Of a DNA stretch of 14,801 nt, positions 1-14,801 are shown one piece after another. The stretch is from a bacterium. GTDB lineage: Bacteria; Blakebacterota; Blakebacteria; Blakebacterales; Blakebacteraceae. A program made the translations under genes and the position numbers. Every line of letters starts with the position of its first letter. Positions within the stretch are counted from its first letter, which is position 1. The DNA lies in assembly GCA_025774615.1 (NCBI GenBank), contig JALGVQ010000051.1:1-14801 (forward strand), written 5' to 3'. Under the pieces are notes generated by a model. It was given only the letters and a program-made list of their open reading frames with translations, ran no database searches and had not been told where the DNA came from.

Positions 1-1095
1 GACGTTCCGTGGTTCTTCAGGTGCCGGCCACTCTACGGTATCCCGGGTATTGTAGAAACGGACGATCTCCTCGAGACTCTTGAAGTATCCGTTGTGCCCG
101 AATGCCTTGACGAAATCGGGATATGGTCTCAGATCCACGTTCCTGAGGGTGGGTACCTTCATCTTCCCCAGTTCGCTCTCTTCTCCCGTGAATCCTCCAA
201 GGCCGGGATCGACCCAGTCGGATCCGTCGGGATTAATGTTGGCGGGCATCCGGTAATACGGGTTATCACGATTCTTCGGGATACCGAGGTTGTCGTAGGT
301 GAAGTCGGTGAAGAGGGGCGGGGTGCCATCATCTGATGGCTGGCTGGGATGGCAGGCTGCGCAGTTGCCCTTATCCTCGGCCTCGAAGAGCTTCAGTCCG
401 AGCGCCTCATGCGGGGTCAGTTCCACTTTGCCAGCCAGGTAATAGTCGTATTTCGATGAGAACTGGTTGATCTCCGCTGAAGCCTCATAGGCGCCGATCG
501 CCTCGGCTATCAGATGATACGTCCGCTCCACATCTTCTCCGGTCTCAAGAGCGAGAGCATCCTCACCAAAGACCTCCCTGAAGAGGGAGGCGTATCCTGA
601 ATCCGCCACCTGACGGCAGATGTAGCGTTCATCGGGACCTGCCTGCTCGACCGGGTTGATGAAGGGCCCCTTTGCCTGCTCCACGACATCATTCGCACGC
701 CCGTCCCAGAACTGTCCGCCGACGTAATGTACTTCTTCCTCCTCACACTCCTCCTCTTCGTGCTCCTCCTTCTCGATCTCCCGGTGGAGACCGGGACTGA
801 AGGAGGCATAGGCGGCCGAGGGGGGCTTCCGATTCCCGAACAGACCGGCGACCGCTCCTTCATAGACCGAGGTCGTGGCGTTGACCTCCGAAGTGGGACC
901 GGTGAAGCCCACGGCAACACCATGACAGGAGGCACACGACTGACCGGTGGGACTCGAGAGGGTCGTGTCGAAGAAGAGCTTTTTACCCAGCTCTTCCTTC
1001 TTCGTGAGAGTCACGGATGCATCATCACCGCTGCTGCCTGAGCAGGCGACCAGAAGGATGGTTCCCCAGGTGATCAGTGTTTTCCCCTTCAGCAT
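1..1095 (-). CDS. Di-haem cytochrome c peroxidase (MauG/CcpA family) lipoprotein, C-terminus cut by window edge
   Basis: 365 codons are visible, all open; the C-terminal end lies beyond the left edge of the window. The start is ATG at 1095, followed by a short lipoprotein signal ending LLLVAC (Cys18), so the mature protein is probably anchored outside the cytoplasmic membrane. Two haem-c sites are visible: CASCH (Cys54-His58) and CAACH (Cys245-His249). The family signature GGQFWDGRA followed by EQAKGPFINPVEQ lies between them, and KMKVPTLRNV comes later, its Met a candidate axial ligand. These are hallmarks of bacterial di-haem peroxidases, which reduce H2O2 or, in MauG-like members, oxidise other substrates. 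Odd: before FWDGR there is an acidic loop (about residues 104-124) with 12 Glu, 3 His and 1 Cys in 21 residues. The gene is divergent from the propeller lipoprotein. The family is certain; the substrate is not known. Confidence 0.93.
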   Translation of the reverse strand, partial: MLKGKTLITWGTILLVACSGSSGDDASVTLTKKEELGKKLFFDTTLSSPTGQSCASCHGVAVGFTGPTSEVNATTSVYEGAVAGLFGNRKPPSAAYASFSPGLHREIEKEEHEEEECEEEEVHYVGGQFWDGRANDVVEQAKGPFINPVEQAGPDERYICRQVADSGYASLFREVFGEDALALETGEDVERTYHLIAEAIGAYEASAEINQFSSKYDYYLAGKVELTPHEALGLKLFEAEDKGNCAACHPSQPSDDGTPPLFTDFTYDNLGIPKNRDNPYYRMPANINPDGSDWVDPGLGGFTGEESELGKMKVPTLRNVDLRPYPDFVKAFGHNGYFKSLEEIVRFYNTRDTVEWPAPEEPRNV

Positions 1096-1173
1096 GAAAC
1101 GGTTCCTTCTTTCGGTCTCTCTCTGACATGTTCTCAAGGAACGCATCACCCACAGTGACTATCTGCAACATCC

Positions 1174-1201
1174 ATTTTACTATCTTCGTACTGGTCAACA
1201 A
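1174..1201 (-). promoter_or_regulatory. Possible sigma-70-type promoter for the cytochrome c peroxidase gene
   Basis: Read on the minus strand, TTGTTG (1196-1201) and TAAAAT (1174-1179, one mismatch to TATAAT) are separated by 16 bp, about 80 bp upstream of the peroxidase start. The -35 match is modest. This is the best candidate in the 200-bp divergent region, but it is not proven. Confidence 0.3.
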
Positions 1202-1295
1202 GAACAGAACCCGATTCGTATTATGAGGAAATCATATCCATTTCGGCACTCTCCGGCCGAGTTTGCATAGATGTCCCGCGAAAGGACCGCTTCCC

Positions 1296-2321
1296 ATGAA
1301 TACGCAATTCATCGACCGGATTATCATGGTCGTCACCCTTCTCCTGGTAGTGACAGCAACAGCGTGTTCCTCATCATCCGACGGGGCGTTTCCCGTCCTC
1401 AATGGTGACTACCTCGGTCAGACTCCTCCTGGATCTGAGCCGGAATTGTTTGCTCCCGGGATAGTGTCGACCGGACTCTATGTTCGTGACGTGGCAATGA
1501 CACCGGACGGTAACGAAATCTACTGGTGCGCGGCAGGAACCGGATATGCGTGGTCGACGATTCTGGTCAGCAGGCGAGTGAACGACCGGTGGACGAAGCC
1601 CGCCGTGACGCCGTGGAGCCGGGAGATCGGCTATTTCAATATCGAACCGCATATCTCACCAGATGGGAAACATTTCTACTTCCTCTCGAACAGGCCAGAT
1701 CCGGCCACCGGTGAGGAAGCGGGCGACTCGGACATCTGGGTGATGGACCGGGTGGGCAGTGGCTGGAGTGAACCGTACAACCTGGGAACGCCGATCAATA
1801 CCGAGCATGCCGAGTTCTTCCCTTCGGTCACCCGGGATGGCACGATGTATTTCACACGCCAGCCTGTCGGCGAACGCGCCAATAACATCTACAGGTCGCG
1901 CATGGTGGATGGGGAGTACCGGGAGCCGGAGCGGCTTCCCATACAGGTGAACTGCGGTGTCTCGCAGTATAACGCCTTCATCGATCCCGATGAGGAATAC
2001 CTGATCGTCTGCGTGGATGGCCGGGATGATACCGTGGGGGCTTGCGACTATTTCATCATATTCCGGAACGGGGACGGCGCGTGGAGTGAGCCGGTCAACA
2101 TGGGCGATACAGTGAATACCGCCCACTGGCAGGAGTATTCCCCGTACATCTCTCCCGACGGGAGATACTTCTTCTTCATGTCCACACGGATGCGCGAGGG
2201 CGGAGATGAGATCCTGACCTGGGATTCGATCATGGCCTCGCATAATGAGTCAGGGAACGGTAATCCCGACATCTACTGGATGGATGCCTCATTCATCGAT
2301 GATCTGAGACCTGACTGGTGA
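1296..2321 (+). CDS. PD40/WD40-like beta-propeller lipoprotein
   Basis: 341 residues. I chose ATG 1296 over an upstream TTG at 1263 because AAAGGA (1281-1286) is well spaced before it and it gives a compact signal peptide. The signal ends VVTATAC (Cys24) and is followed by a Ser-rich linker, so it is a probable lipoprotein. The body consists of repeated propeller blades with the PD40 pattern SPDG-(K/R)-x-F-(Y/F)-F-x-S-(N/T)-R followed by D-I-(W/Y)-x-M-D. Clear copies lie near residues 126-155 and 285-330, with weaker ones between. PD40 repeats occur in TolB and in many secreted or periplasmic proteins, where they act as binding scaffolds. No catalytic domain is attached, so a specific role cannot be assigned. 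The protein ends shortly after the last blade and looks complete. Confidence 0.85.
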   Translation: MNTQFIDRIIMVVTLLLVVTATACSSSSDGAFPVLNGDYLGQTPPGSEPELFAPGIVSTGLYVRDVAMTPDGNEIYWCAAGTGYAWSTILVSRRVNDRWTKPAVTPWSREIGYFNIEPHISPDGKHFYFLSNRPDPATGEEAGDSDIWVMDRVGSGWSEPYNLGTPINTEHAEFFPSVTRDGTMYFTRQPVGERANNIYRSRMVDGEYREPERLPIQVNCGVSQYNAFIDPDEEYLIVCVDGRDDTVGACDYFIIFRNGDGAWSEPVNMGDTVNTAHWQEYSPYISPDGRYFFFMSTRMREGGDEILTWDSIMASHNESGNGNPDIYWMDASFIDDLRPDW

Positions 2322-2365
2322 TCGGGCACCATGCTGTTGATCCGAATGCGTACGTCATCAGCCTT

Positions 2366-2525
2366 GTGCCCTGTCACGCAACAACCGTCGCATTCGAGCG
2401 GCGCCGTATCCCGACCGGCTGCGTTGCACCTCCTCGCCATAGCCACCGCTATGCCTCGTCGTCACGCCTTGCCGGTCAAGCACGGCGTCACTCTCGGTAC
2501 CGACGTTTGTCACCTGACATGACAC
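2366..2525 (+). repeat. 160-bp near-palindromic interspersed repeat, copy A
   Basis: This block matches 11454-11613 in the same orientation with no gaps; I count 16 differences in 160 positions (about 90% identity). Most differences lie in the right-central part, at about 2461-2495. The block is itself a large imperfect palindrome: its ends begin GTGCCCTGTCA and, on the other strand, GTGTCATGTCA, with about 16 of the next 24 positions matching. GACCGGC (2413-2419) pairs with GCCGGTC (2471-2477). CATAGC-CACC-GCTATG (2438-2453) sits exactly on the dyad at 2445.5. It encodes no plausible protein. It resembles a MITE or a long REP-like element. No clear target-site duplication is visible. Confidence 0.85.
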
Positions 2526-2539
2526 TATGAGGAGACACG

Positions 2540-2629
2540 ATGCACAGCGAATACGTGTACCAACAGGTACGGGTAATAGATTGGTCTGTACCTGATGGTA
2601 CAGAATGGACAGCTTCAACGTGGCTCTGA
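2540..2629 (+). CDS. Possible 29-residue small ORF (leader-like), unproven
   Basis: ATG at 2540 follows GAGGAG (2529-2534) at a 5-base spacing, the best Shine-Dalgarno match in this intergenic stretch. The ORF runs 29 codons to TGA (2627-2629). The predicted peptide is hydrophilic, rich in Val and Trp (three Trp), with no signal peptide. Both GTACC-type palindromes lie inside it. It could be a real small gene, a leader, or chance in a regulatory region. It belongs to no family I recognise. Confidence 0.2.
   Translation: MHSEYVYQQVRVIDWSVPDGTEWTASTWL
2557..2604 (+). promoter_or_regulatory. Tandem palindromic operators, probable enhancer sites for a sigma-54 activator
   Basis: Two inverted repeats share the core GTACC-N4-GGTAC. 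Site 1 is GTACC-AACA-GGTAC (2557-2570). Site 2 is the longer, perfect TCTGTACC-TGAT-GGTACAGA (2585-2604). Their centres (2563.5 and 2594.5) are 31 bp apart, close to three helical turns, so they face the same side of the DNA. They lie about 130-160 bp upstream of the -24 element at 2726, the usual distance for enhancer sites of NtrC-type activators. The palindromes and spacing are read directly; the identity of the binding protein is inference. Confidence 0.6.
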
Positions 2630-2661
2630 AGGAATATCCCGGTATCTCATGAAGGTCTGTA

Positions 2662-2690
2662 ACCTGTTATCAATAAAACAATTAACAGGT
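2662..2690 (+). promoter_or_regulatory. Inverted repeat with AT-rich centre between enhancer sites and sigma-54 promoter
   Basis: Perfect 8-bp arms ACCTGTTA (2662-2669) and TAACAGGT (2683-2690) flank a 13-bp AT-rich centre. The position between the upstream palindromes and the promoter would suit a bending or auxiliary-protein site. It does not fit the IHF consensus well (the TTR half is missing). Function unknown. Confidence 0.35.
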
Positions 2691-2724
2691 CAGTTCGTGT
2701 TCGATTACCGGTCATGGAAAAGAA

Positions 2725-2740
2725 TGGCACGCTGATTGCA
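2725..2740 (+). promoter_or_regulatory. Sigma-54 (-24/-12) promoter of the DUF4382 lipoprotein gene
   Basis: TGGCAC-GCTGA-TTGCA has the invariant GG (2726-2727) and GC (2738-2739) separated by exactly 10 bp, and essentially matches the RpoN consensus TGGCAC-N5-TTGCA. Transcription would start near 2750, giving a leader of about 85 nt before the ATG at 2836. The tandem palindromes upstream support activator-dependent control. This is the strongest promoter call in the window. Confidence 0.75.
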
Positions 2741-2768
2741 TTTGTTCATGGCATCAGACAGGTATGCC

Positions 2769-2783
2769 GCTCATCAGATGAGC
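2769..2783 (+). other. Small hairpin in the 5' leader of the DUF4382 gene
   Basis: GCTCAT-CAG-ATGAGC is a perfect 6-bp inverted repeat with a 3-nt loop, about 20 nt after the predicted sigma-54 start. Outer bases ACAG and CTGT could extend it with a bulge. It may affect mRNA stability or be an operator; there is no other evidence. Confidence 0.3.
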
Positions 2784-2835
2784 CTGTTGTGCCCGCCCGC
2801 ACATCCAGCCGCGCAACCTAAGGAGCCGGGACAGC

Positions 2836-3684
2836 ATGAAAGACTTCATACACAAGACCTGGATCGGGGGACTCCTGACAGCCCTGGTGCTGACACTGGG
2901 GTTAGCCGCGTGTTCCTCAACAGATTCTTCCGGAAGCGGGTCGCTCCAGCTGACGCTGGTTGACGCACCCACACCGATCGAGGGTATCGAAGCGATCGAC
3001 ATAACCTTCTCATCCATAATCGTCCACAAGACGAGCAGTGCTGAACTGGGTGACGCTCAGTGGATAGTTCTCCTGGATGAAGAACTGAGTGCCGCTGCGC
3101 GCACCTTCGATCTACTGGAATATGTTAATGGCGCGTCGGCGGTCCTGGGATCTGCATCCCTTGAATCAGGCCACTACAGTCAGATCCGTATCATCATCGA
3201 GTCGGCGACCATCACCATCGATGGCGTGGAATCAGCACTCACGATCCTCAGCGGGACCGTATCAGGTCTGAAACTGACACACGCCTTCACCATCGACGCG
3301 AATGTGATCACCGAGATAATTCTCGACTTCGATGCAGGGGAATCAGTATCGGAGGTTCCAGTCGGGAGCGGACAATATCGGCTGCAGCCCACTATCCGTA
3401 CCGTGACGAAGGTGATCTCGGGAACGATATCCGGCACGGTCACACCGACAGGTGTCGATGCCCTGGTGATCGCGTATGACGCGGGTACCACCACGGTCGT
3501 CACGTCGACCTACGTCGATAACGAAACAGGTGACTACGTCCTGCCGGCCCTGCTTGAGGGTTCCTACGATCTCGAAGCTGTTGCCGAAGGGTACGTGACA
3601 GGCACCGAAGCGGGAGTGACAGTGATTGCCCAGACGGATTCTGGAGATCACGACTTCGTACTCGCTACTGGTGGGGGAAACTGA
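2836..3684 (+). CDS. DUF4382 lipoprotein with C-terminal carboxypeptidase-regulatory-like domain
   Basis: 282 residues. ATG 2836 is preceded by AGGAG (2821-2825). The signal peptide has Lys/His near the N-terminus, a hydrophobic stretch and the lipobox LAAC (Cys26). Residues about 37-190 fit DUF4382: SLQLTLVDAPTP, then a dLLEYVNG segment, SGHYSQIRIII, a short ITIDGVES turn, and a LDFDAGESV..GQYRLQPTIR ending. A beta-rich C-terminal domain (about 195-278, beginning ISGTISGTVTPTG and later GDYVLPALLEGSYDLEA) fits the carboxypeptidase-regulatory-like (CnaB-like) fold found on many surface proteins. The molecular function of DUF4382 is unknown; a surface binding or structural role is the usual guess. 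Expression probably depends on sigma-54 and an activator, given the sites at 2557-2740. It ends before a strong terminator. Confidence 0.85.
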   Translation: MKDFIHKTWIGGLLTALVLTLGLAACSSTDSSGSGSLQLTLVDAPTPIEGIEAIDITFSSIIVHKTSSAELGDAQWIVLLDEELSAAARTFDLLEYVNGASAVLGSASLESGHYSQIRIIIESATITIDGVESALTILSGTVSGLKLTHAFTIDANVITEIILDFDAGESVSEVPVGSGQYRLQPTIRTVTKVISGTISGTVTPTGVDALVIAYDAGTTTVVTSTYVDNETGDYVLPALLEGSYDLEAVAEGYVTGTEAGVTVIAQTDSGDHDFVLATGGGN

Positions 3685-3738
3685 TCTGATACCAGCCCCG
3701 GATCCATACTGTTCTCTGTGCTGTGATCAGCAGAAATG

Positions 3739-3772
3739 AAGGGCGGGGGCTGTGATGCTCCCGCCCTTTTTT
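3739..3772 (+). terminator. Intrinsic terminator between convergent genes
   Basis: The stem AAGGGCGGGGGC / GCTCCCGCCCTT (one G-T pair) with loop TGTGAT is followed by a run of six T (3767-3772). It terminates the DUF4382 transcript. Because the leading arm starts with AA on the other side, it could also weakly stop the kbl operon arriving from the right. Confidence 0.88.
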
Positions 3773-3812
3773 CATGTGTGGTTGTAACTGCTTCGGTTGA
3801 TGAAACCGGCGA

Positions 3813-5060
3813 TCACATACCGAACTTCTCGATCAGCTCCTGCTTGCCGAGGCCGAGGATCCCGTACTTCTCACCTACCGTGGTGAAGGCCGCGATCGCC
3901 TTGTCGAGGTGGTGCTTCTCATGCGCGGCAGACAGCTGGGTGCGGATCCGCGCCTGTCCCTGCGGTACTACCGGAAAGAAGAAACCGACGGCGTAGATGC
4001 CTTCGGCGAACAGGTCGGTAGCGACATCCTGGGCCAGTTTGGCATTGTAGAGCATCACCGGCACGATCGGGCTGTCACCCGACTTGACGTCGAACCCTGC
4101 ATCGTCCAGGAGCTGTCGCCAGTACGTTGTGTTCTCCTCGAGCTTGTCCCGCCGTTCGGTCGACCCCGAGACGATCTCCATGACCCGCAACGTCCCCGAG
4201 ACGATCACCGGGGCGACGGTATTGGAGAAGAGATAGGGCCTGGCCTTCTGACGGCACAGTTCAACCAGTTCCCTGCGACCGCTCACACACCCGCCGGACG
4301 CGCCACCGAGGGCCTTGCCGAAGGTGGTTGTGACGATGTCGATCTTGCCGAGTACTCCGCAATGTTCATGGGTGCCGCGGCCGGTCCTGCCGATGAACCC
4401 GGATGCGTGTGATTCATCCACGAACACCATGGCATCGTATTTCTCGGCCAGCGCCACGATCTCATCGAGCTTTGCCAGATCGCCGTCCATCGAGAACACG
4501 CCGTCGGTGATGATCAGCCGATTCCGCTTGTCCTGGTGCAGTATCAGCTTCTTCTCGAGGTGCTTCATGTCGGAGTGTTTGTAGGAGTCGTTCATCGCCT
4601 TGCAGAGCCGCATTCCGTCGATGATGGAGGCGTGCACGAGCCGGTCGGCGATCATGACGTCCTCCTCATTCAGGACTGCTTCGAACACACCGGCGTTTGC
4701 GTCCATGCAGGAGGGGAAGAGGATGGTGTCCTCGGTGCCGAGGAACTCCGTCATCTTCTGTTCCAGTTCGCGATGGATATCCTGAGTACCGCAGATGAAA
4801 CGTACCGAGGACATACCGTACCCACGGCTGTCGAGGCCAGCGTGGGCAGCGTCGATGACCTCCTGGTTACCCGAGAGACCGAGGTAGTTGTTTGCGCACA
4901 TGTTGATGACCGACTTCAGGGCAGAACCCTCGGGGAATTCCACCTCGATCTCGGCGTTCTGGGGCGCATGGATGAACCGCTCCTTCTTGAAGAGTCCGGC
5001 ATCTTCGATTCCCTTCAGGTCCTCCTGGTACGCCGTGCGCGTCTTCTCACTGTAAGCCAT
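3813..5060 (-). CDS. kbl: Kbl-like alpha-oxoamine synthase (2-amino-3-ketobutyrate CoA ligase / glycine C-acetyltransferase family)
   Basis: 415 residues. ATG 5060 is preceded by AGGAG at good spacing. It is a fold-type I PLP enzyme. Kbl hallmarks along the chain are NMCANNYLGL, GMSSVRFICGTQD, the VDESH motif (Kbl has S-H where BioF and serine palmitoyltransferase have A-H), PLP-lysine Lys249 in TTFGKALGGASGG, and QARIRTQLSAAH. Apart from about 15 extra C-terminal residues (GLGKQELIEKFGM) it is close to normal length. Known Kbl condenses acetyl-CoA with glycine, or runs in reverse in threonine breakdown beside threonine dehydrogenase (tdh). Here there is no tdh. It is the last gene of acpS-acsA-acp-kbl, 24 bp after the carrier protein gene. 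An acyl-ACP donor is therefore plausible but is inference. The family call is firm; the physiological reaction is open. Confidence 0.93.
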   Translation of the reverse strand: MAYSEKTRTAYQEDLKGIEDAGLFKKERFIHAPQNAEIEVEFPEGSALKSVINMCANNYLGLSGNQEVIDAAHAGLDSRGYGMSSVRFICGTQDIHRELEQKMTEFLGTEDTILFPSCMDANAGVFEAVLNEEDVMIADRLVHASIIDGMRLCKAMNDSYKHSDMKHLEKKLILHQDKRNRLIITDGVFSMDGDLAKLDEIVALAEKYDAMVFVDESHASGFIGRTGRGTHEHCGVLGKIDIVTTTFGKALGGASGGCVSGRRELVELCRQKARPYLFSNTVAPVIVSGTLRVMEIVSGSTERRDKLEENTTYWRQLLDDAGFDVKSGDSPIVPVMLYNAKLAQDVATDLFAEGIYAVGFFFPVVPQGQARIRTQLSAAHEKHHLDKAIAAFTTVGEKYGILGLGKQELIEKFGM

Positions 5061-5084
5061 GACCTCGGTCTCCTTATTGTATTC

Positions 5085-5336
5085 TCAAGCGTCCAGGAAG
5101 CGCTCCACCAGGACGGCGATCTTCTCGACCGAGTCGAATGCCTCGGGAGTGGCGTCGGAGTCGGGGATCTGGATCCCGTATTTGTTCTCGAGGAATCGCT
5201 TCAGCGATACCATCGAAAAGGAGTCCACAATGCCTCCGGAGATGAGCGGGGTATCCATTTCGACTTCGCGGTCATCGTCTTCCTCGAGGTACTCATCCTG
5301 CACGTATTCCAGAACGGTCTCTTTGATATCTTCCAT
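5085..5336 (-). CDS. Acyl carrier protein (phosphopantetheine-binding)
   Basis: 83 residues, ATG 5336 with AAGGAA upstream. An acidic helical carrier with the 4'-phosphopantetheine site in GGIVDSFSMVSL; the modified residue should be Ser39. The DSF form, rather than the DSL of fatty-acid AcpP, is common in dedicated carriers encoded next to adenylating enzymes. It lies between the acyl-CoA synthetase-like gene (49 bp) and kbl (24 bp), so it most likely carries the acyl group between those two enzymes. The acpS gene in the same operon would convert it to the holo form. The cargo is unknown. Confidence 0.93.
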   Translation of the reverse strand: MEDIKETVLEYVQDEYLEEDDDREVEMDTPLISGGIVDSFSMVSLKRFLENKYGIQIPDSDATPEAFDSVEKIAVLVERFLDA

Positions 5337-5385
5337 CAGTCTGTTCCTTGCGTGGTGTTATGAACGCCGATTTCAGTGCCGGCGC

Positions 5386-7086
5386 TCAGTCGTTCTCCAG
5401 TGATGAGATGTCACCGATCGGCTCGCCCCATTCCTGCGCCCGGAGAAGCCGTCGCATGATCTTACCGCTTCGGGTCTTCGGCAGGGAATCGACAAACTCG
5501 ATCTCCTGCGGCATGGCCAGTGGCGAGAGCCGCTTACGGACGAAATTCATGATCTCCAGCTCGAGGTCGGGACCTGCTTCAAAGCCGGGTTTGAGCGCAA
5601 CGAACGCCTTGACGACCTCCATGTTGACCTCGTCCGGTTTCCCTATCGCGGCTGATTCGGCGACCGAGTCGTGCTCCAGGAGCGCCGATTCGATCTCGAA
5701 CGGGCCGACGAGGTGTCCGCCGGTGTTGATCGTGTCGTCGTCACGGCCCTGGAACCAGTAGTAACCGTCGGCATCGATGCTCGCCCGGTCACCACATACG
5801 TACCACCCGTTGATGAACTTGCTATCGTAGACCTCCTGGTTGTTCCAGTAGGTCCTGAACATCGAAGGCCAGCCGGGTTTAAGTCCGATCACACCGACAC
5901 TGCCGGTCTCGTTCAGTGGTTCGAAGGTGTCGGGGTCGAGGATGGTCGCTTCGATACCGGGGAATGGCTTGCCCATCGAACCTGCCTTGATCGGCATCCC
6001 GGGGTAGTTGGTGATGACCATCGAACCGGTCTCTGTCTGCCAGTAGGTGTCGTGAAAGGCGAGTCCGTAGGCCTCCATCGACCAGTGCACTGCCTCGGCA
6101 TTGAGCGGCTCGCCCACACTGCAGAGGTGACGGAGAGAGGAAAGGTCGAACTTGCTGACCGTATCGAGTCCCTCCCTCATCAGGAGCCTGATAGCTGTGG
6201 GAGCCGAGTACCAGACGGTGATCCGGTGTTTCTCGATGAACTTGTACCATCGTTCGGTCTGGAATCCGGAGTCGAGGACTGCCTGAGTGATGCCGTTCGC
6301 CCAGGGGCCGATGATCCCGTAGGAGGTGCCGGTCACCCAGCCGGGGTCGGCGTTGCACCAGTAGATGTCGTCGGGCTGAAGGTCAAGCACCCACCGGGCG
6401 GAGAGGTACTGCGAAATGAGCGAGTAGTGGACATGCAGGGCACCCTTCGGCTGACCGGTGGTGCCGGAGGTGTAGTGAAGCACCGAGGGAGTCTCGGCGG
6501 TAGAGGGATGGACATCGAACTCCTCGACTCGCGGCGTCGAATCGAGGTCGAAGATCACCTCACGCTCGCGCAATTTCTCCGGATCGCCATCGACAACGAT
6601 GATGTGCTTGAGGTCGGGCAGGGAGTCACGGATCTTCCTGATCTTCGCGACATGCTTCCGCTGGGTGAAGATCGCGGATGTCCCGGCGGGTCCGAGACGC
6701 TGGTGGAGTGATTCGTCTCCGAACGCGGAGAAGAGGGGCTGTGCGATGCCTCCCATCTTCAGGATGCCGAGAAAGGAGAGGTAGAGTTCAGGTACTCGGT
6801 CGAGGAAGAGACAGATCCGGTCGCCCGGTTCGAGCCCCAGCTCCTTCAGGTAGCTCGCAATGGTGTTCGTAAGCACCCGCATGTCATCGAACGTATAGGT
6901 CCGCTCATCACCCGCGGCGTTCTCCCAGATGAAAGCGGTCTTCTCGGCGAGACCCTGCTCGCAGTTCCGGTCGGTGCAGTACCAGCCGATGTTGATGACA
7001 TCACCCTTATTGTAGTCGAGTTCCTGTTCAGAGAGCGACCAGTCGAAGTCGTTCAGGCGCTCCCCGTAAGAGCCGATATTGGACAT
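5386..7086 (-). CDS. acsA: AMP-forming acyl-CoA synthetase, AcsA (acetyl-CoA synthetase) subgroup
   Basis: 566 residues, ATG 7086 with AGGAG about 9 bp upstream. ANL-superfamily adenylating enzyme: P-loop-like motif HYTSGTTGQPKGALHVH, then CNADPGWVTGTSYG, VWYSAPTAIRLL, the DTYWQTETGS motif, a GWYVCGDRA hinge-region motif, and catalytic Lys542 in PKTRSGKIMRR. It closely follows Bacillus AcsA in length and order. The Trp in YWQTETG corresponds to the residue that closes the acyl pocket to short acids in acetyl-CoA synthetase, so a short acyl substrate (acetate- to butyrate-sized) is likely by family knowledge. It sits 34 bp after acpS and 49 bp before the ACP gene, so it may load the carrier directly or through CoA. 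The exact acid and acceptor are not known. Confidence 0.92.
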   Translation of the reverse strand: MSNIGSYGERLNDFDWSLSEQELDYNKGDVINIGWYCTDRNCEQGLAEKTAFIWENAAGDERTYTFDDMRVLTNTIASYLKELGLEPGDRICLFLDRVPELYLSFLGILKMGGIAQPLFSAFGDESLHQRLGPAGTSAIFTQRKHVAKIRKIRDSLPDLKHIIVVDGDPEKLREREVIFDLDSTPRVEEFDVHPSTAETPSVLHYTSGTTGQPKGALHVHYSLISQYLSARWVLDLQPDDIYWCNADPGWVTGTSYGIIGPWANGITQAVLDSGFQTERWYKFIEKHRITVWYSAPTAIRLLMREGLDTVSKFDLSSLRHLCSVGEPLNAEAVHWSMEAYGLAFHDTYWQTETGSMVITNYPGMPIKAGSMGKPFPGIEATILDPDTFEPLNETGSVGVIGLKPGWPSMFRTYWNNQEVYDSKFINGWYVCGDRASIDADGYYWFQGRDDDTINTGGHLVGPFEIESALLEHDSVAESAAIGKPDEVNMEVVKAFVALKPGFEAGPDLELEIMNFVRKRLSPLAMPQEIEFVDSLPKTRSGKIMRRLLRAQEWGEPIGDISSLEND

Positions 7087-7120
7087 ACTCTTCTCTCCTC
7101 GTTCCCTCTGTGGTGTCCGT

Positions 7121-7504
7121 TCATCCTTCCAGGATGACGTAAGCCATTGCCATGGTCGACGTATGAGAGAGCGAGCAATGGATCGTGGTGACCCCGTTTC
7201 TGTCAGCCAGATCTTTCATGCTCCCGCGCAGAATCATCTGCGGCACGCCATCGTCGTCGATCTGGACCTCGGTATCGCGCCATGATGCTCCCTCATCGGG
7301 GGCGCCGCCGAGCGCCTTGATGAGCGCCTCCCGGGCGGCAAAACGAACTGCGTAATGCTGCGCCCGGTGTCTCTTCCCCTCACAGTATTCGATCTCGGTC
7401 CGGGTAAAGACATCGTCCCTGAAACCACCATCCTCCTTCGCGAGTTCCCGCTCCATGCGGTCCACGTCGAGGATGTCGCAACCGATTCCGAGGATCTGGG
7501 AGAT
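7121..7504 (-). CDS. acpS: Holo-[acyl-carrier-protein] synthase (4'-phosphopantetheinyl transferase, AcpS type); non-standard start
   Basis: Transfers phosphopantetheine from CoA to the Ser of the carrier protein, here probably the ACP two genes downstream. Family motifs: GIGCD (Mg-binding Asp), FTRTEIEYC, RFAAREALIKALG (catalytic Glu), IHCSLSHTSTMAMAYVILE. The first ordinary start in frame is GTG at 7465, which would give 114 residues and remove the essential GIGCDI motif. Upstream the frame stays open to a TGA at 7595-7597 but has no ATG, GTG or TTG. ATC at 7504 would give SQILGIGCDI at the N-terminus and 127 residues, the usual AcpS length, so I use it. No strong ribosome-binding site is visible there. 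A sequencing error or substitution of ATG is the alternative. It is the first gene of the four-gene operon. Confidence 0.8.
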   Translation of the reverse strand: MSQILGIGCDILDVDRMERELAKEDGGFRDDVFTRTEIEYCEGKRHRAQHYAVRFAAREALIKALGGAPDEGASWRDTEVQIDDDGVPQMILRGSMKDLADRNGVTTIHCSLSHTSTMAMAYVILEG

Positions 7505-7620: not shown

Positions 7621-7647
7621 CAGTGATGTTTTCCGAAATCATCACTG
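7621..7647 (-). other. Perfect-armed palindrome over the MFS stop codon
   Basis: Arms CAGTGATG / CATCACTG (8 bp) surround an AT-rich centre that pairs further (TTTC with GAAA). The stop codon of the transporter (7642-7644) lies inside one arm. There is no T-run after it on either strand, so it is not a clear terminator. It could be an mRNA-stabilising hairpin between the transporter and acpS, or an operator for the acpS operon. Confidence 0.4.
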
Positions 7648-8853
7648 CATGCGGATCCTCGTCAGCCTGCGGATCGCTCCGATCCCGAATAGCGGCCCGA
7701 GTACGAGTATCTGGAAGCTCCATATCCAGCCGACGGCGTCCACCAGGAGCGGGATGAGCTGGATGCTCACCATGGTCAGGAGGAACCCGAGAGAGGTCTG
7801 CAGGGTGAGCGCGGTTCCCACCGAATGTGCCGGTGCAACCTCGGTTACGAGAGCGCTGAACTGCGCGGAATCAGCGACGACGAAGAATCCCCATATCCAC
7901 GCGAGAGGGGCGATAAGCCAGATTCCGGCCCCGAAGAGCAGCCCGATCGTGAGCGAGCACGCCCCACTGGCGATCAGGCTTATGGTCACCAGGCGTTCCC
8001 GCCCGATCCGGTCGGCGAGCCAGCCGCCCCAGACACAGCCAGCTCCGCCCGCCGCTATGGTACCGAAGGCGATGAGGTTGACTGCATCGCCGGAACCGCT
8101 CCCGCTCCGCAGCGCTGCTGCGGTCAGAAAGGCCGGGATCCAGGTCCACATGGCGTAGAGTTCCCACATGTGTCCCAGATAACCGGCCACGGCAAGGCGG
8201 GTAGGGGGATGGCGCAGGACGTCTGCTGCCAGCCGCCACTCGAACGGCCTCCGCTCGAATGGAAAGGGGCCGTCCCGGTAGCCGAGGCCGACCAGGAGAG
8301 CGGCAACAACAGCACCGCCTGAGGCCACCAGCACGATACCGGTCAGATCGTTGCCGATGAAGACGCTCACCAGCCATGGAGTCGCCTTGCCGAAGGTGAG
8401 TGCCCCGACCACCGTCCCGATCGCCAGACCTCGGGCTGAGCGGAACCAGGTTGCGATCATCTTCATCGCCGGCGGATAGACACCAGCCAGGAAGAAACCG
8501 GTCAGAAACCGCATGACGAGCGCGGCTGTGAATCCGGACACGGAGAGGAGCAGGGCATTCGCGATCGCGGCAAGGAGGACCGAGAGTGTGAAATAGCCAC
8601 GTGACGGCACGATGTCGGCCAGATTGAGAATGGCAGCGACAAGAGTACCGGCCACGAATCCGAACTGTACGATGGTCGTGAGCCAGCCTGTCTGCAATGG
8701 GCTCAGGCCCCACAGTGCCTGCAGGGTTGGGGATGCGGCGCTGGCTGTGAACCAGAGGGCCATGCCCAGCAGTTCGGCGAGAGAGAGCAGGAAGAGGATG
8801 CGCCAGCGGGCCGGATCTCTGTCTTCAGTGTTTTCAGGCAGGGATTCGCTCAT
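7642..8853 (-). CDS. Major facilitator superfamily transporter
   Basis: 403 residues with about 12 hydrophobic segments, the first at about residue 20 and the last near the C-terminus. MFS features include the cytoplasmic loop WLADRIGRERLV between the sixth-to-eighth segments, and GVYPPAMKMIATWF, typical of the second half of the first six-helix bundle. Its start ATG overlaps the stop of the preceding lipoprotein gene (ATGA, 8850-8853), so the two are probably translationally coupled. It lies 137 bp upstream of acpS on the same strand and may belong to the same transcript, so export or uptake of the operon's small molecule is possible but unsupported by sequence. The substrate cannot be read from the motif set. 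Confidence 0.88.
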   Translation of the reverse strand: MSESLPENTEDRDPARWRILFLLSLAELLGMALWFTASAASPTLQALWGLSPLQTGWLTTIVQFGFVAGTLVAAILNLADIVPSRGYFTLSVLLAAIANALLLSVSGFTAALVMRFLTGFFLAGVYPPAMKMIATWFRSARGLAIGTVVGALTFGKATPWLVSVFIGNDLTGIVLVASGGAVVAALLVGLGYRDGPFPFERRPFEWRLAADVLRHPPTRLAVAGYLGHMWELYAMWTWIPAFLTAAALRSGSGSGDAVNLIAFGTIAAGGAGCVWGGWLADRIGRERLVTISLIASGACSLTIGLLFGAGIWLIAPLAWIWGFFVVADSAQFSALVTEVAPAHSVGTALTLQTSLGFLLTMVSIQLIPLLVDAVGWIWSFQILVLGPLFGIGAIRRLTRIRMQ

Positions 8854-11418: not shown

Positions 11419-11453
11419 TATCCCGCCCCGATTGAAGGATCGATACCATGCTA

Positions 11454-11613
11454 GTGCCCTGTCACGCGACAACCGTCGCATTCGAGCGGCGCCGAATCCC
11501 GACCGGCTGCGTTCCGCCTTCTCGCCATAGCCACCGCTATGCCTCGTCGCCGCGCCTTGCAGGCCGGGCCCGGCAGAACTCTCGGTGCCGACGTTTGTCA
11601 CCTGACATGACAC
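11454..11613 (+). repeat. 160-bp near-palindromic interspersed repeat, copy B
   Basis: Second copy of the element at 2366-2525, same length, same orientation, about 90% identical. The central CATAGC-CACC-GCTATG and both ends are unchanged, while the inner right arm has drifted and no longer keeps the GACCGGC/GCCGGTC pairing exactly. It lies between the kinase and the DUF4097 lipoprotein and ends 20 bp before that gene's likely start. The last bases (ATGACACC) form an in-frame alternative start codon at 11607. Confidence 0.85.
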
Positions 11614-11633
11614 CAGGATCACTCCGCAGGTAT

Positions 11634-14556: not shown

Positions 14557-14801
14557 GTGGCCTATCATTCAAGACGTTTCGCGAACAGCCCTCTCCACCG
14601 ACTTCTCCAGGATCACTGGGAGCCGTTTCTCGGTGTGTACGAAGAACAGTTCCAGCATACCTTCGGTACCCTGCGGTCGGTCTCTGAGCGGGTAGTCGGG
14701 AAGTTCCTTGATTGCGGCAATCCGATGAATGGATTTGCCCGGATCCGATGCCCGGAATGCGGTCACGAGAGGCTTCTGGCGTTTTCGTGCAAATGTCGTG
14801 G
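14557..14801 (+). CDS. IS91-type transposase, N-terminal zinc-binding domain, cut by window edge
   Basis: The open frame reads from GTG 14557 to the end of the window (81 codons and a partial one). It is not the frame that contains an ATG at 14472. Sequence features are ANSPLHRLLQDHWEPF, VYEEQFQHTFG, VVGKFLDCGNPMNGFARI and RCPECGHERLLAFSCKCR, the last with Cys pairs. This is the zinc-binding N-terminal domain of IS91/IS801-type transposases (Pfam Zn_Tnp_IS91 pattern); the catalytic Y2/HUH domain would follow outside the window. The frame is open a little further upstream (to 14428) without an ATG, so the start is approximate. Confidence 0.85.
   Translation, partial: MAYHSRRFANSPLHRLLQDHWEPFLGVYEEQFQHTFGTLRSVSERVVGKFLDCGNPMNGFARIRCPECGHERLLAFSCKCR

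What the first reader, a model, noticed from the sequence alone, without database searches (positions are those of the whole stretch)
3813..7504. Compact acpS-acsA-ACP-kbl operon: a carrier-protein-dependent alpha-oxoamine synthase route?
Seen: a Kbl-like enzyme, a dedicated DSF-type carrier protein, a short-acyl AMP-forming ligase and an AcpS-type transferase lie on one strand with gaps of 24-49 bp. Known: ordinary Kbl uses acetyl-CoA and sits with tdh, while serine palmitoyltransferase clusters sometimes combine an oxoamine synthase with an ACP and ligase. Inference: here a Kbl-type enzyme has been moved to an ACP-loaded acyl donor and makes an alpha-amino ketone from glycine (or another amino acid). 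No reductase, tdh or ceramide-type partner is present, so the product may be released or modified elsewhere. The MFS transporter upstream could export it.
Basis: partly seen in the sequence, partly recalled or inferred. Interest (0 to 1): 0.75.

Follow-up and report, generated by a model that had tools for sequence, protein, structure and literature searches.

The report
Carrier-protein version of threonine–glycine enzyme Kbl
Four neighbouring genes form a widely conserved but undescribed bacterial module in which an enzyme that normally joins or splits glycine and acetate on coenzyme A appears to use acetate carried on its own small carrier protein, usually alongside a threonine dehydrogenase elsewhere in the genome.

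Summary
The four genes are real and in the stated order and strand: acpS 7504-7121, acsA 7086-5386, ACP 5336-5085, kbl 5060-3813, with gaps of 34, 49 and 24 bp. The grouping is not chance. A scan with the 83-residue ACP returned 80 loci from at least six phyla; all 80 have kbl next to it, 79 also acsA, and 60 the full set in order. The cassette Kbl is one well-supported clade. It keeps every glycine/PLP residue of Kbl, but has lost the basic residue at the CoA-ADP position and gained a C-terminal helix. Two parts need correcting. The ligase pocket and neighbours (acetate transporter in 17 of 80 loci) point to acetyl, so the product is probably ordinary 2-amino-3-oxobutyrate. And Tdh is not missing: this genome has one on another contig, 44 of 50 cassette genomes have one, and in several phyla it adjoins the cassette. 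Best reading: acetate ⇌ acetyl-ACP ⇌ (with glycine) 2-amino-3-oxobutyrate ⇌ threonine. Direction is unproven. I found no description of it in the open literature.

The parts
3813..5060 (-). kbl-type alpha-oxoamine synthase of the cassette clade (PLP enzyme, 415 aa); PLP Lys249, His143, Ser190, His218 and Arg373 kept, CoA-ADP position changed, C-terminal helix 406-413 added
5085..5336 (-). dedicated acyl carrier protein, 83 aa, acidic (23 D/E, 7 K/R), phosphopantetheine serine in GGIVDSF
   Evidence: DSF in 90 of 90 homologues
5386..7086 (-). AcsA-type AMP-forming ligase with an acetate-sized pocket (Trp of DTYWQTETG kept); proposed acetyl-ACP synthetase
7121..7504 (-). AcpS-type phosphopantetheinyl transferase, second copy of the genome; start codon unclear (no ATG/GTG/TTG before the conserved N-terminus)
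7642..8853 (-). MFS transporter 137 bp upstream, linked on the same strand only in the window's own family
3738..3769 (.). G+C-rich hairpin about 44 bp past the kbl stop, possible end of the transcription unit (best T-run is on the + strand)

Best explanation
A self-contained, ACP-dependent Kbl module. AcpS arms the small ACP with phosphopantetheine. The AcsA-type ligase exchanges acetate and acetyl-ACP with ATP/AMP+PPi. The Kbl-type enzyme exchanges glycine + acetyl-ACP with 2-amino-3-oxobutyrate + HS-ACP. A Tdh, elsewhere in this genome but adjacent in some relatives, links this to threonine. In effect it is the Tdh-Kbl threonine/glycine/acetate pathway with the acetyl group kept on a private carrier protein instead of free CoA. 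Shown here: gene set, conservation, distinct clade, intact glycine site, altered CoA-ADP site, acetate-sized ligase pocket, linkage to acetate genes and Tdh. Inferred: that the ligase and Kbl really use the ACP, and the direction. I lean slightly towards threonine breakdown to glycine and acetate, because most cassette genomes, this one included, have a threonine synthase.
For: Core linkage: 80 of 80 ACP loci have kbl, 79 acsA, 60 all four genes. One clade, support 100/99. Residues CnKBL N52, V81, H138, S187, H215, K246, L274, F275 and R370 (PMC9814548) correspond to N57, V86, H143, S190, H218, K249, L277, F278 and R373, all invariant across the cassette sample. The position equivalent to ALAS2 Lys299 (His+14, at the CoA adenine site; PMC7272653) is Arg in 36 of 38 canonical Kbl but in 7 of 74 cassette Kbl; net charge of His+14 to +17 goes from +1.8 to -0.9; a 14-residue tail is present in 70 of 74. 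Acetate: ligase Trp kept in 78 of 83; acetate transporter NF038013 next to the cassette in 17 of 80 loci, ADP-forming acetate-CoA ligase in 15. Tdh: own genome; 44 of 50 genomes; adjacent or near in L011, L033, L036, L037, L053, L060, L074, L170. Precedent for the wiring: SPT-AcpR-AasR (PMC9386255).
Against: No biochemistry exists. The ligase scores as an ordinary acetate-CoA ligase and is the only close AcsA match in most cassette genomes, so it may make acetyl-CoA. Arg at His+8, the other ALAS CoA contact, is kept. In 199 Acidobacteriota, Tdh is not significantly commoner with the cassette (14 of 25 against 76 of 174, p = 0.29). Some cassette genomes show no Tdh. In G051 (own family) acsA is missing from the operon and an acylating aldehyde dehydrogenase lies nearby.
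Confidence: 0.6

Rival explanations
1. Same enzymes run as a synthetic route: acetate is taken up, loaded on ACP with ATP and condensed with glycine to 2-amino-3-oxobutyrate, which is reduced to threonine or lost as aminoacetone.
For: Linked transporter is named an acetate uptake transporter; ATP-driven loading on a carrier usually commits carbon to synthesis (general knowledge); a metX/homoserine dehydrogenase fusion lies between tdh and acpS in L036.
Against: Threonine synthase was found in 32 of 38 cassette genomes searched, 28 above the family cut-off, so another threonine route looks unnecessary; Tdh-Kbl is normally catabolic (general knowledge).
Confidence: 0.25
2. CoA-only reading: AcsA makes acetyl-CoA and Kbl uses CoA as usual; the ACP serves another partner or only tethers the enzymes.
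For: AcsA and Kbl pass curated cut-offs for the CoA enzymes and AcsA is the sole close copy in most genomes.
Against: The ACP sits beside Kbl in every locus, even where acsA is elsewhere (L034, L160, L175); Kbl lost the His+14 basic residue and gained a tail; many genomes keep a canonical Kbl as well.
Confidence: 0.1
3. One reading: a new alpha-amino ketone from another acyl group or amino acid, exported by the MFS.
For: Some cassette genomes show no Tdh; MFS linked in the own family.
Against: Acetate-sized ligase pocket, acetate genes nearby, unchanged glycine-site residues, Tdh in 44 of 50 genomes.
Confidence: 0.05

Closest known systems
Glycine C-acetyltransferase Kbl with Tdh (E. coli, Cupriavidus necator)
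   Same: Family models, about 50% identity, all PLP and glycine-site residues, Tdh in the genome
   Different: Separate clade; Arg at the CoA-ADP position lost; C-terminal helix added; tied to ACP, AcpS and AcsA
Serine palmitoyltransferase-AcpR-AasR system of Caulobacter and relatives (PMC9386255)
   Same: Oxoamine synthase + dedicated ACP + dedicated acyl-ACP synthetase
   Different: Long-chain acyl and serine there; here acetate and glycine, Kbl not SPT, and a dedicated AcpS in most loci
Cysteate acyl-ACP transferase of Alistipes finegoldii (PMC9304779, PDB 7u7h) and BioF (crosslinked to an ACP in PDB 8dle)
   Same: Oxoamine synthases that take, or were crosslinked with, an ACP
   Different: Different substrates; not seen here with an operon-borne acetate ligase
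AcsA acetate-CoA ligase (NF003313)
   Same: Above cut-off, acetate pocket kept
   Different: Genetically tied to an ACP; acceptor untested

Membership tests
Kbl / glycine C-acetyltransferase (TIGR01822) | score above curated cut-off | tested here: met
   577.6 against 493 bits
Kbl / glycine C-acetyltransferase (TIGR01822) | PLP and glycine-site residues | tested here: met
   N57, V86, H143, S190, H218, K249, L277, F278, R373 invariant
Kbl / glycine C-acetyltransferase (TIGR01822) | basic residue at the CoA-ADP position as in canonical Kbl | tested here: not met
   Arg 36/38 in canonical, 7/74 in cassette; Asn157 in the window protein
Kbl / glycine C-acetyltransferase (TIGR01822) | uses acetyl-CoA | not testable with these tools
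   needs assay
Kbl / glycine C-acetyltransferase (TIGR01822) | partner Tdh | tested here: met
   Tdh on another contig, NF003808 430.5 against 380 bits; not adjacent in this genome
SPT-AcpR-AasR type system | oxoamine synthase, ACP and AMP-forming ligase genetically linked | tested here: met
SPT-AcpR-AasR type system | oxoamine synthase is SPT | tested here: not met
   SPT models 225-314 bits, cut-offs 500-670
SPT-AcpR-AasR type system | ligase acylates the cognate ACP | not testable with these tools
   needs assay
AcsA acetate-CoA ligase | curated model and acetate-pocket Trp | tested here: met
   752 against 729 bits; Trp in 78 of 83
TIGR01825 BioF/Kbl-related acyltransferase | score above cut-off | tested here: not met
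   410 against 535 bits

The most novel reading that the evidence does not exclude
A carrier protein used in catabolism: threonine is split by an ACP-specific Kbl to glycine and acetyl-ACP, and the AcsA-type ligase runs backwards on acetyl-ACP with AMP and PPi to make acetate and ATP, so that energy is conserved outside the CoA pool. Reverse operation of an AMP-forming acetyl-CoA synthetase has precedent in Syntrophus (PMC4992975, title and abstract only); doing so on an ACP would be new as far as I know.
Probability: 0.22. Interest if true: 0.85.

Novelty: new variant of a known kind. Interest (0 to 1): 0.62.

Why it matters
Genes named kbl and acsA in many uncultured phyla are read as ordinary CoA enzymes in metabolic reconstructions. 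If this cassette keeps acetyl on a private carrier, those reconstructions are wrong at this step, and an acetyl-ACP would be a metabolic intermediate outside fatty acid and polyketide synthesis. The module is compact and the key question can be settled with four purified proteins.

Tried and rejected
Sphingolipid-type reading: rejected, SPT models far below cut-off, ligase pocket acetate-sized, no ceramide-type partner seen in the window. Housekeeping AcpS by chance: rejected, a separate AcpS beside a HAD-type gene lies on C184 and acpS is in the cassette in 60 of 80 loci. Structure model of Kbl: mean pLDDT 74 with a poorly placed core; best matches are Kbl structures (Z 25-26, 50-52% identity) ahead of AONS and SPT, but rmsd about 16 over the full length, so no pocket geometry was read from it. 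Co-occurrence of Tdh within Acidobacteriota: tested, not significant. Literature searches for Kbl with ACP and acetate ligase found nothing; the library holds open papers only. Rfam found nothing in the window. ACP-Kbl docking could not be run.

Full report
OBSERVATION. Kbl passes the glycine C-acetyltransferase models (TIGR01822 577.6 against 493; NF005394 580 against 460) and AcsA passes NF003313 (752 against 729). The ACP has the phosphopantetheine motif GGIVDSF; AcpS matches PF01648. The acpS frame has no standard start codon ahead of the conserved N-terminus 'ILGIGCDI'; this is either a rare start or a sequence error.

NOT CHANCE. The 83-aa ACP was used to scan one genome per species: 158 relatives, best 80 kept, 65-76% identical, from Bacteroidota, Aminicenantota/Acidobacteriota, Zixibacteria, Elusimicrobia, Krumholzibacteriia, Delongbacteria and Eisenbacteria. 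In all 80 a Kbl lies next to the ACP, in 79 also the AcsA, and in 60 all four genes in the same order; several of the rest are cut by contig ends. No other gene is conserved throughout. In an even sample of 199 Acidobacteriota, identity to the cassette Kbl is bimodal: 25 genomes at 69-78%, then a gap, then ordinary Kbl at 62% and below. The window's own phylum has only four genomes on hand; one of the same family has the ACP and Kbl (83%) and one of the same genus has only an ordinary Kbl (54-55%).

A SEPARATE KBL CLADE. A tree of 75 proteins puts 34 cassette Kbl on one branch, support 100/99, next to a tandem Kbl of a Delongbacterium. Canonical Kbl coexists in many of the same genomes and in 22 of 80 loci sits within the locus itself, mostly just before acpS.

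WHICH HALF OF THE ACTIVE SITE CHANGED. The residues that hold PLP and the amino acid in C. necator Kbl (PMC9814548) are all invariant in the cassette sample (the correspondence of numbers is mine, from the alignments). The CoA side is different. In human ALAS2, residues His+8 (Arg293) and His+14 (Lys299), counted from the active-site His285, lie where the CoA adenine and 3'-phosphoadenosine would bind, and a C-terminal extension covers that site (PMC7272653). In Kbl, His+8 stays Arg in both groups, but His+14 is Arg in 36 of 38 canonical and 7 of 74 cassette proteins; His+15 goes from Phe/Tyr to Asp in 74 of 74, and His+16 from mostly Arg to Thr/Ser in 73 of 74. Net charge over His+14 to +17 falls from +1.8 to -0.9 on average. 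A 14-residue C-terminal tail is present in 70 of 74 cassette proteins and in the Delongbacterial tandem copy among the canonical set; the model shows it as a helix (406-413, high local confidence). This is what one expects if the enzyme no longer reads the ADP part of CoA and takes a protein-borne pantetheine instead. It is inference from sequence.

THE ACYL GROUP IS ACETYL. The acetate-pocket Trp (DTYWQTETG) is kept in 78 of 83 cassette ligases (that this Trp limits the acid to acetate or propionate size is established knowledge of Acs). An acetate transporter (NF038013, PF01184) follows the cassette in 17 of 80 loci, an ADP-forming acetate-CoA ligase lies nearby in 15, and an acylating acetaldehyde dehydrogenase sits close to the cassette in L012, L160, L167 and L168.

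TDH IS THERE. The window's genome carries an MDR-type Tdh at C247, at a contig end, above the NF003808 cut-off. Of 50 cassette genomes, 12 have MDR-type and 33 SDR-type Tdh (49-63% identical to F. frigidimaris Tdh, PDB 2yy7; my recalled query sequence was checked against the PDB), 44 in all. Tdh adjoins or lies close to the cassette in L011, L033, L036, L037, L053, L060, L074 and L170. Within Acidobacteriota, though, Tdh is not significantly enriched with the cassette (14 of 25 against 76 of 174, p = 0.29), so Tdh is a frequent, not an obligatory, partner.

MECHANISM. Proposed: AcpS arms ACP; AcsA exchanges acetate and acetyl-ACP; Kbl exchanges acetyl-ACP + glycine and 2-amino-3-oxobutyrate; Tdh connects to threonine. 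A threonine synthase is found in 32 of 38 cassette genomes searched, including this one, so the route is probably not needed to make threonine, which tips me towards breakdown; the acetate transporter would fit either direction. The wiring has a clear precedent in SPT-AcpR-AasR, where the ligase loads only its ACP and SPT prefers acyl-AcpR (PMC9386255, abstract).

LIMITS. No biochemistry; most relatives are incomplete metagenome assemblies; the ligase may still make acetyl-CoA, as it is the only close AcsA match in most of these genomes. I found no paper on this gene set, but the library covers open papers only.

Noticed in passing
7465-7504 (-): acpS has no ATG, GTG or TTG ahead of the conserved N-terminus; the family relative G051 has ATG where this genome has CAG. 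Rare start codon or sequence error.
   Followed up: partly
2363-2530 and 11451-11618: A 168-nt direct repeat, 89% identical, 9.1 kb apart on either side of the cassette region; looks like an interspersed repeat of this genome, though not seen in 62 kb of its other contigs that were on hand.
   Followed up: partly
L160 (G051), 606-5419: In the window's own family the acsA is missing from the operon; the order is acylating acetaldehyde dehydrogenase, MFS, acpS, ACP, kbl.
   Followed up: yes
L081, 8257-10879: A Delongbacterium has cassette kbl and a second kbl in tandem; the second has the canonical CoA-side motif yet bears the cassette-type C-terminal tail, a possible evolutionary intermediate.
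   Followed up: partly
L036, 2026-9598: Terriglobia locus with tdh, a metX/homoserine dehydrogenase fusion gene, then acpS-acsA-ACP-kbl.
   Followed up: partly
14557-14799: Start of a possible transposase-like frame at the window's right end, judged by eye only.
   Followed up: no
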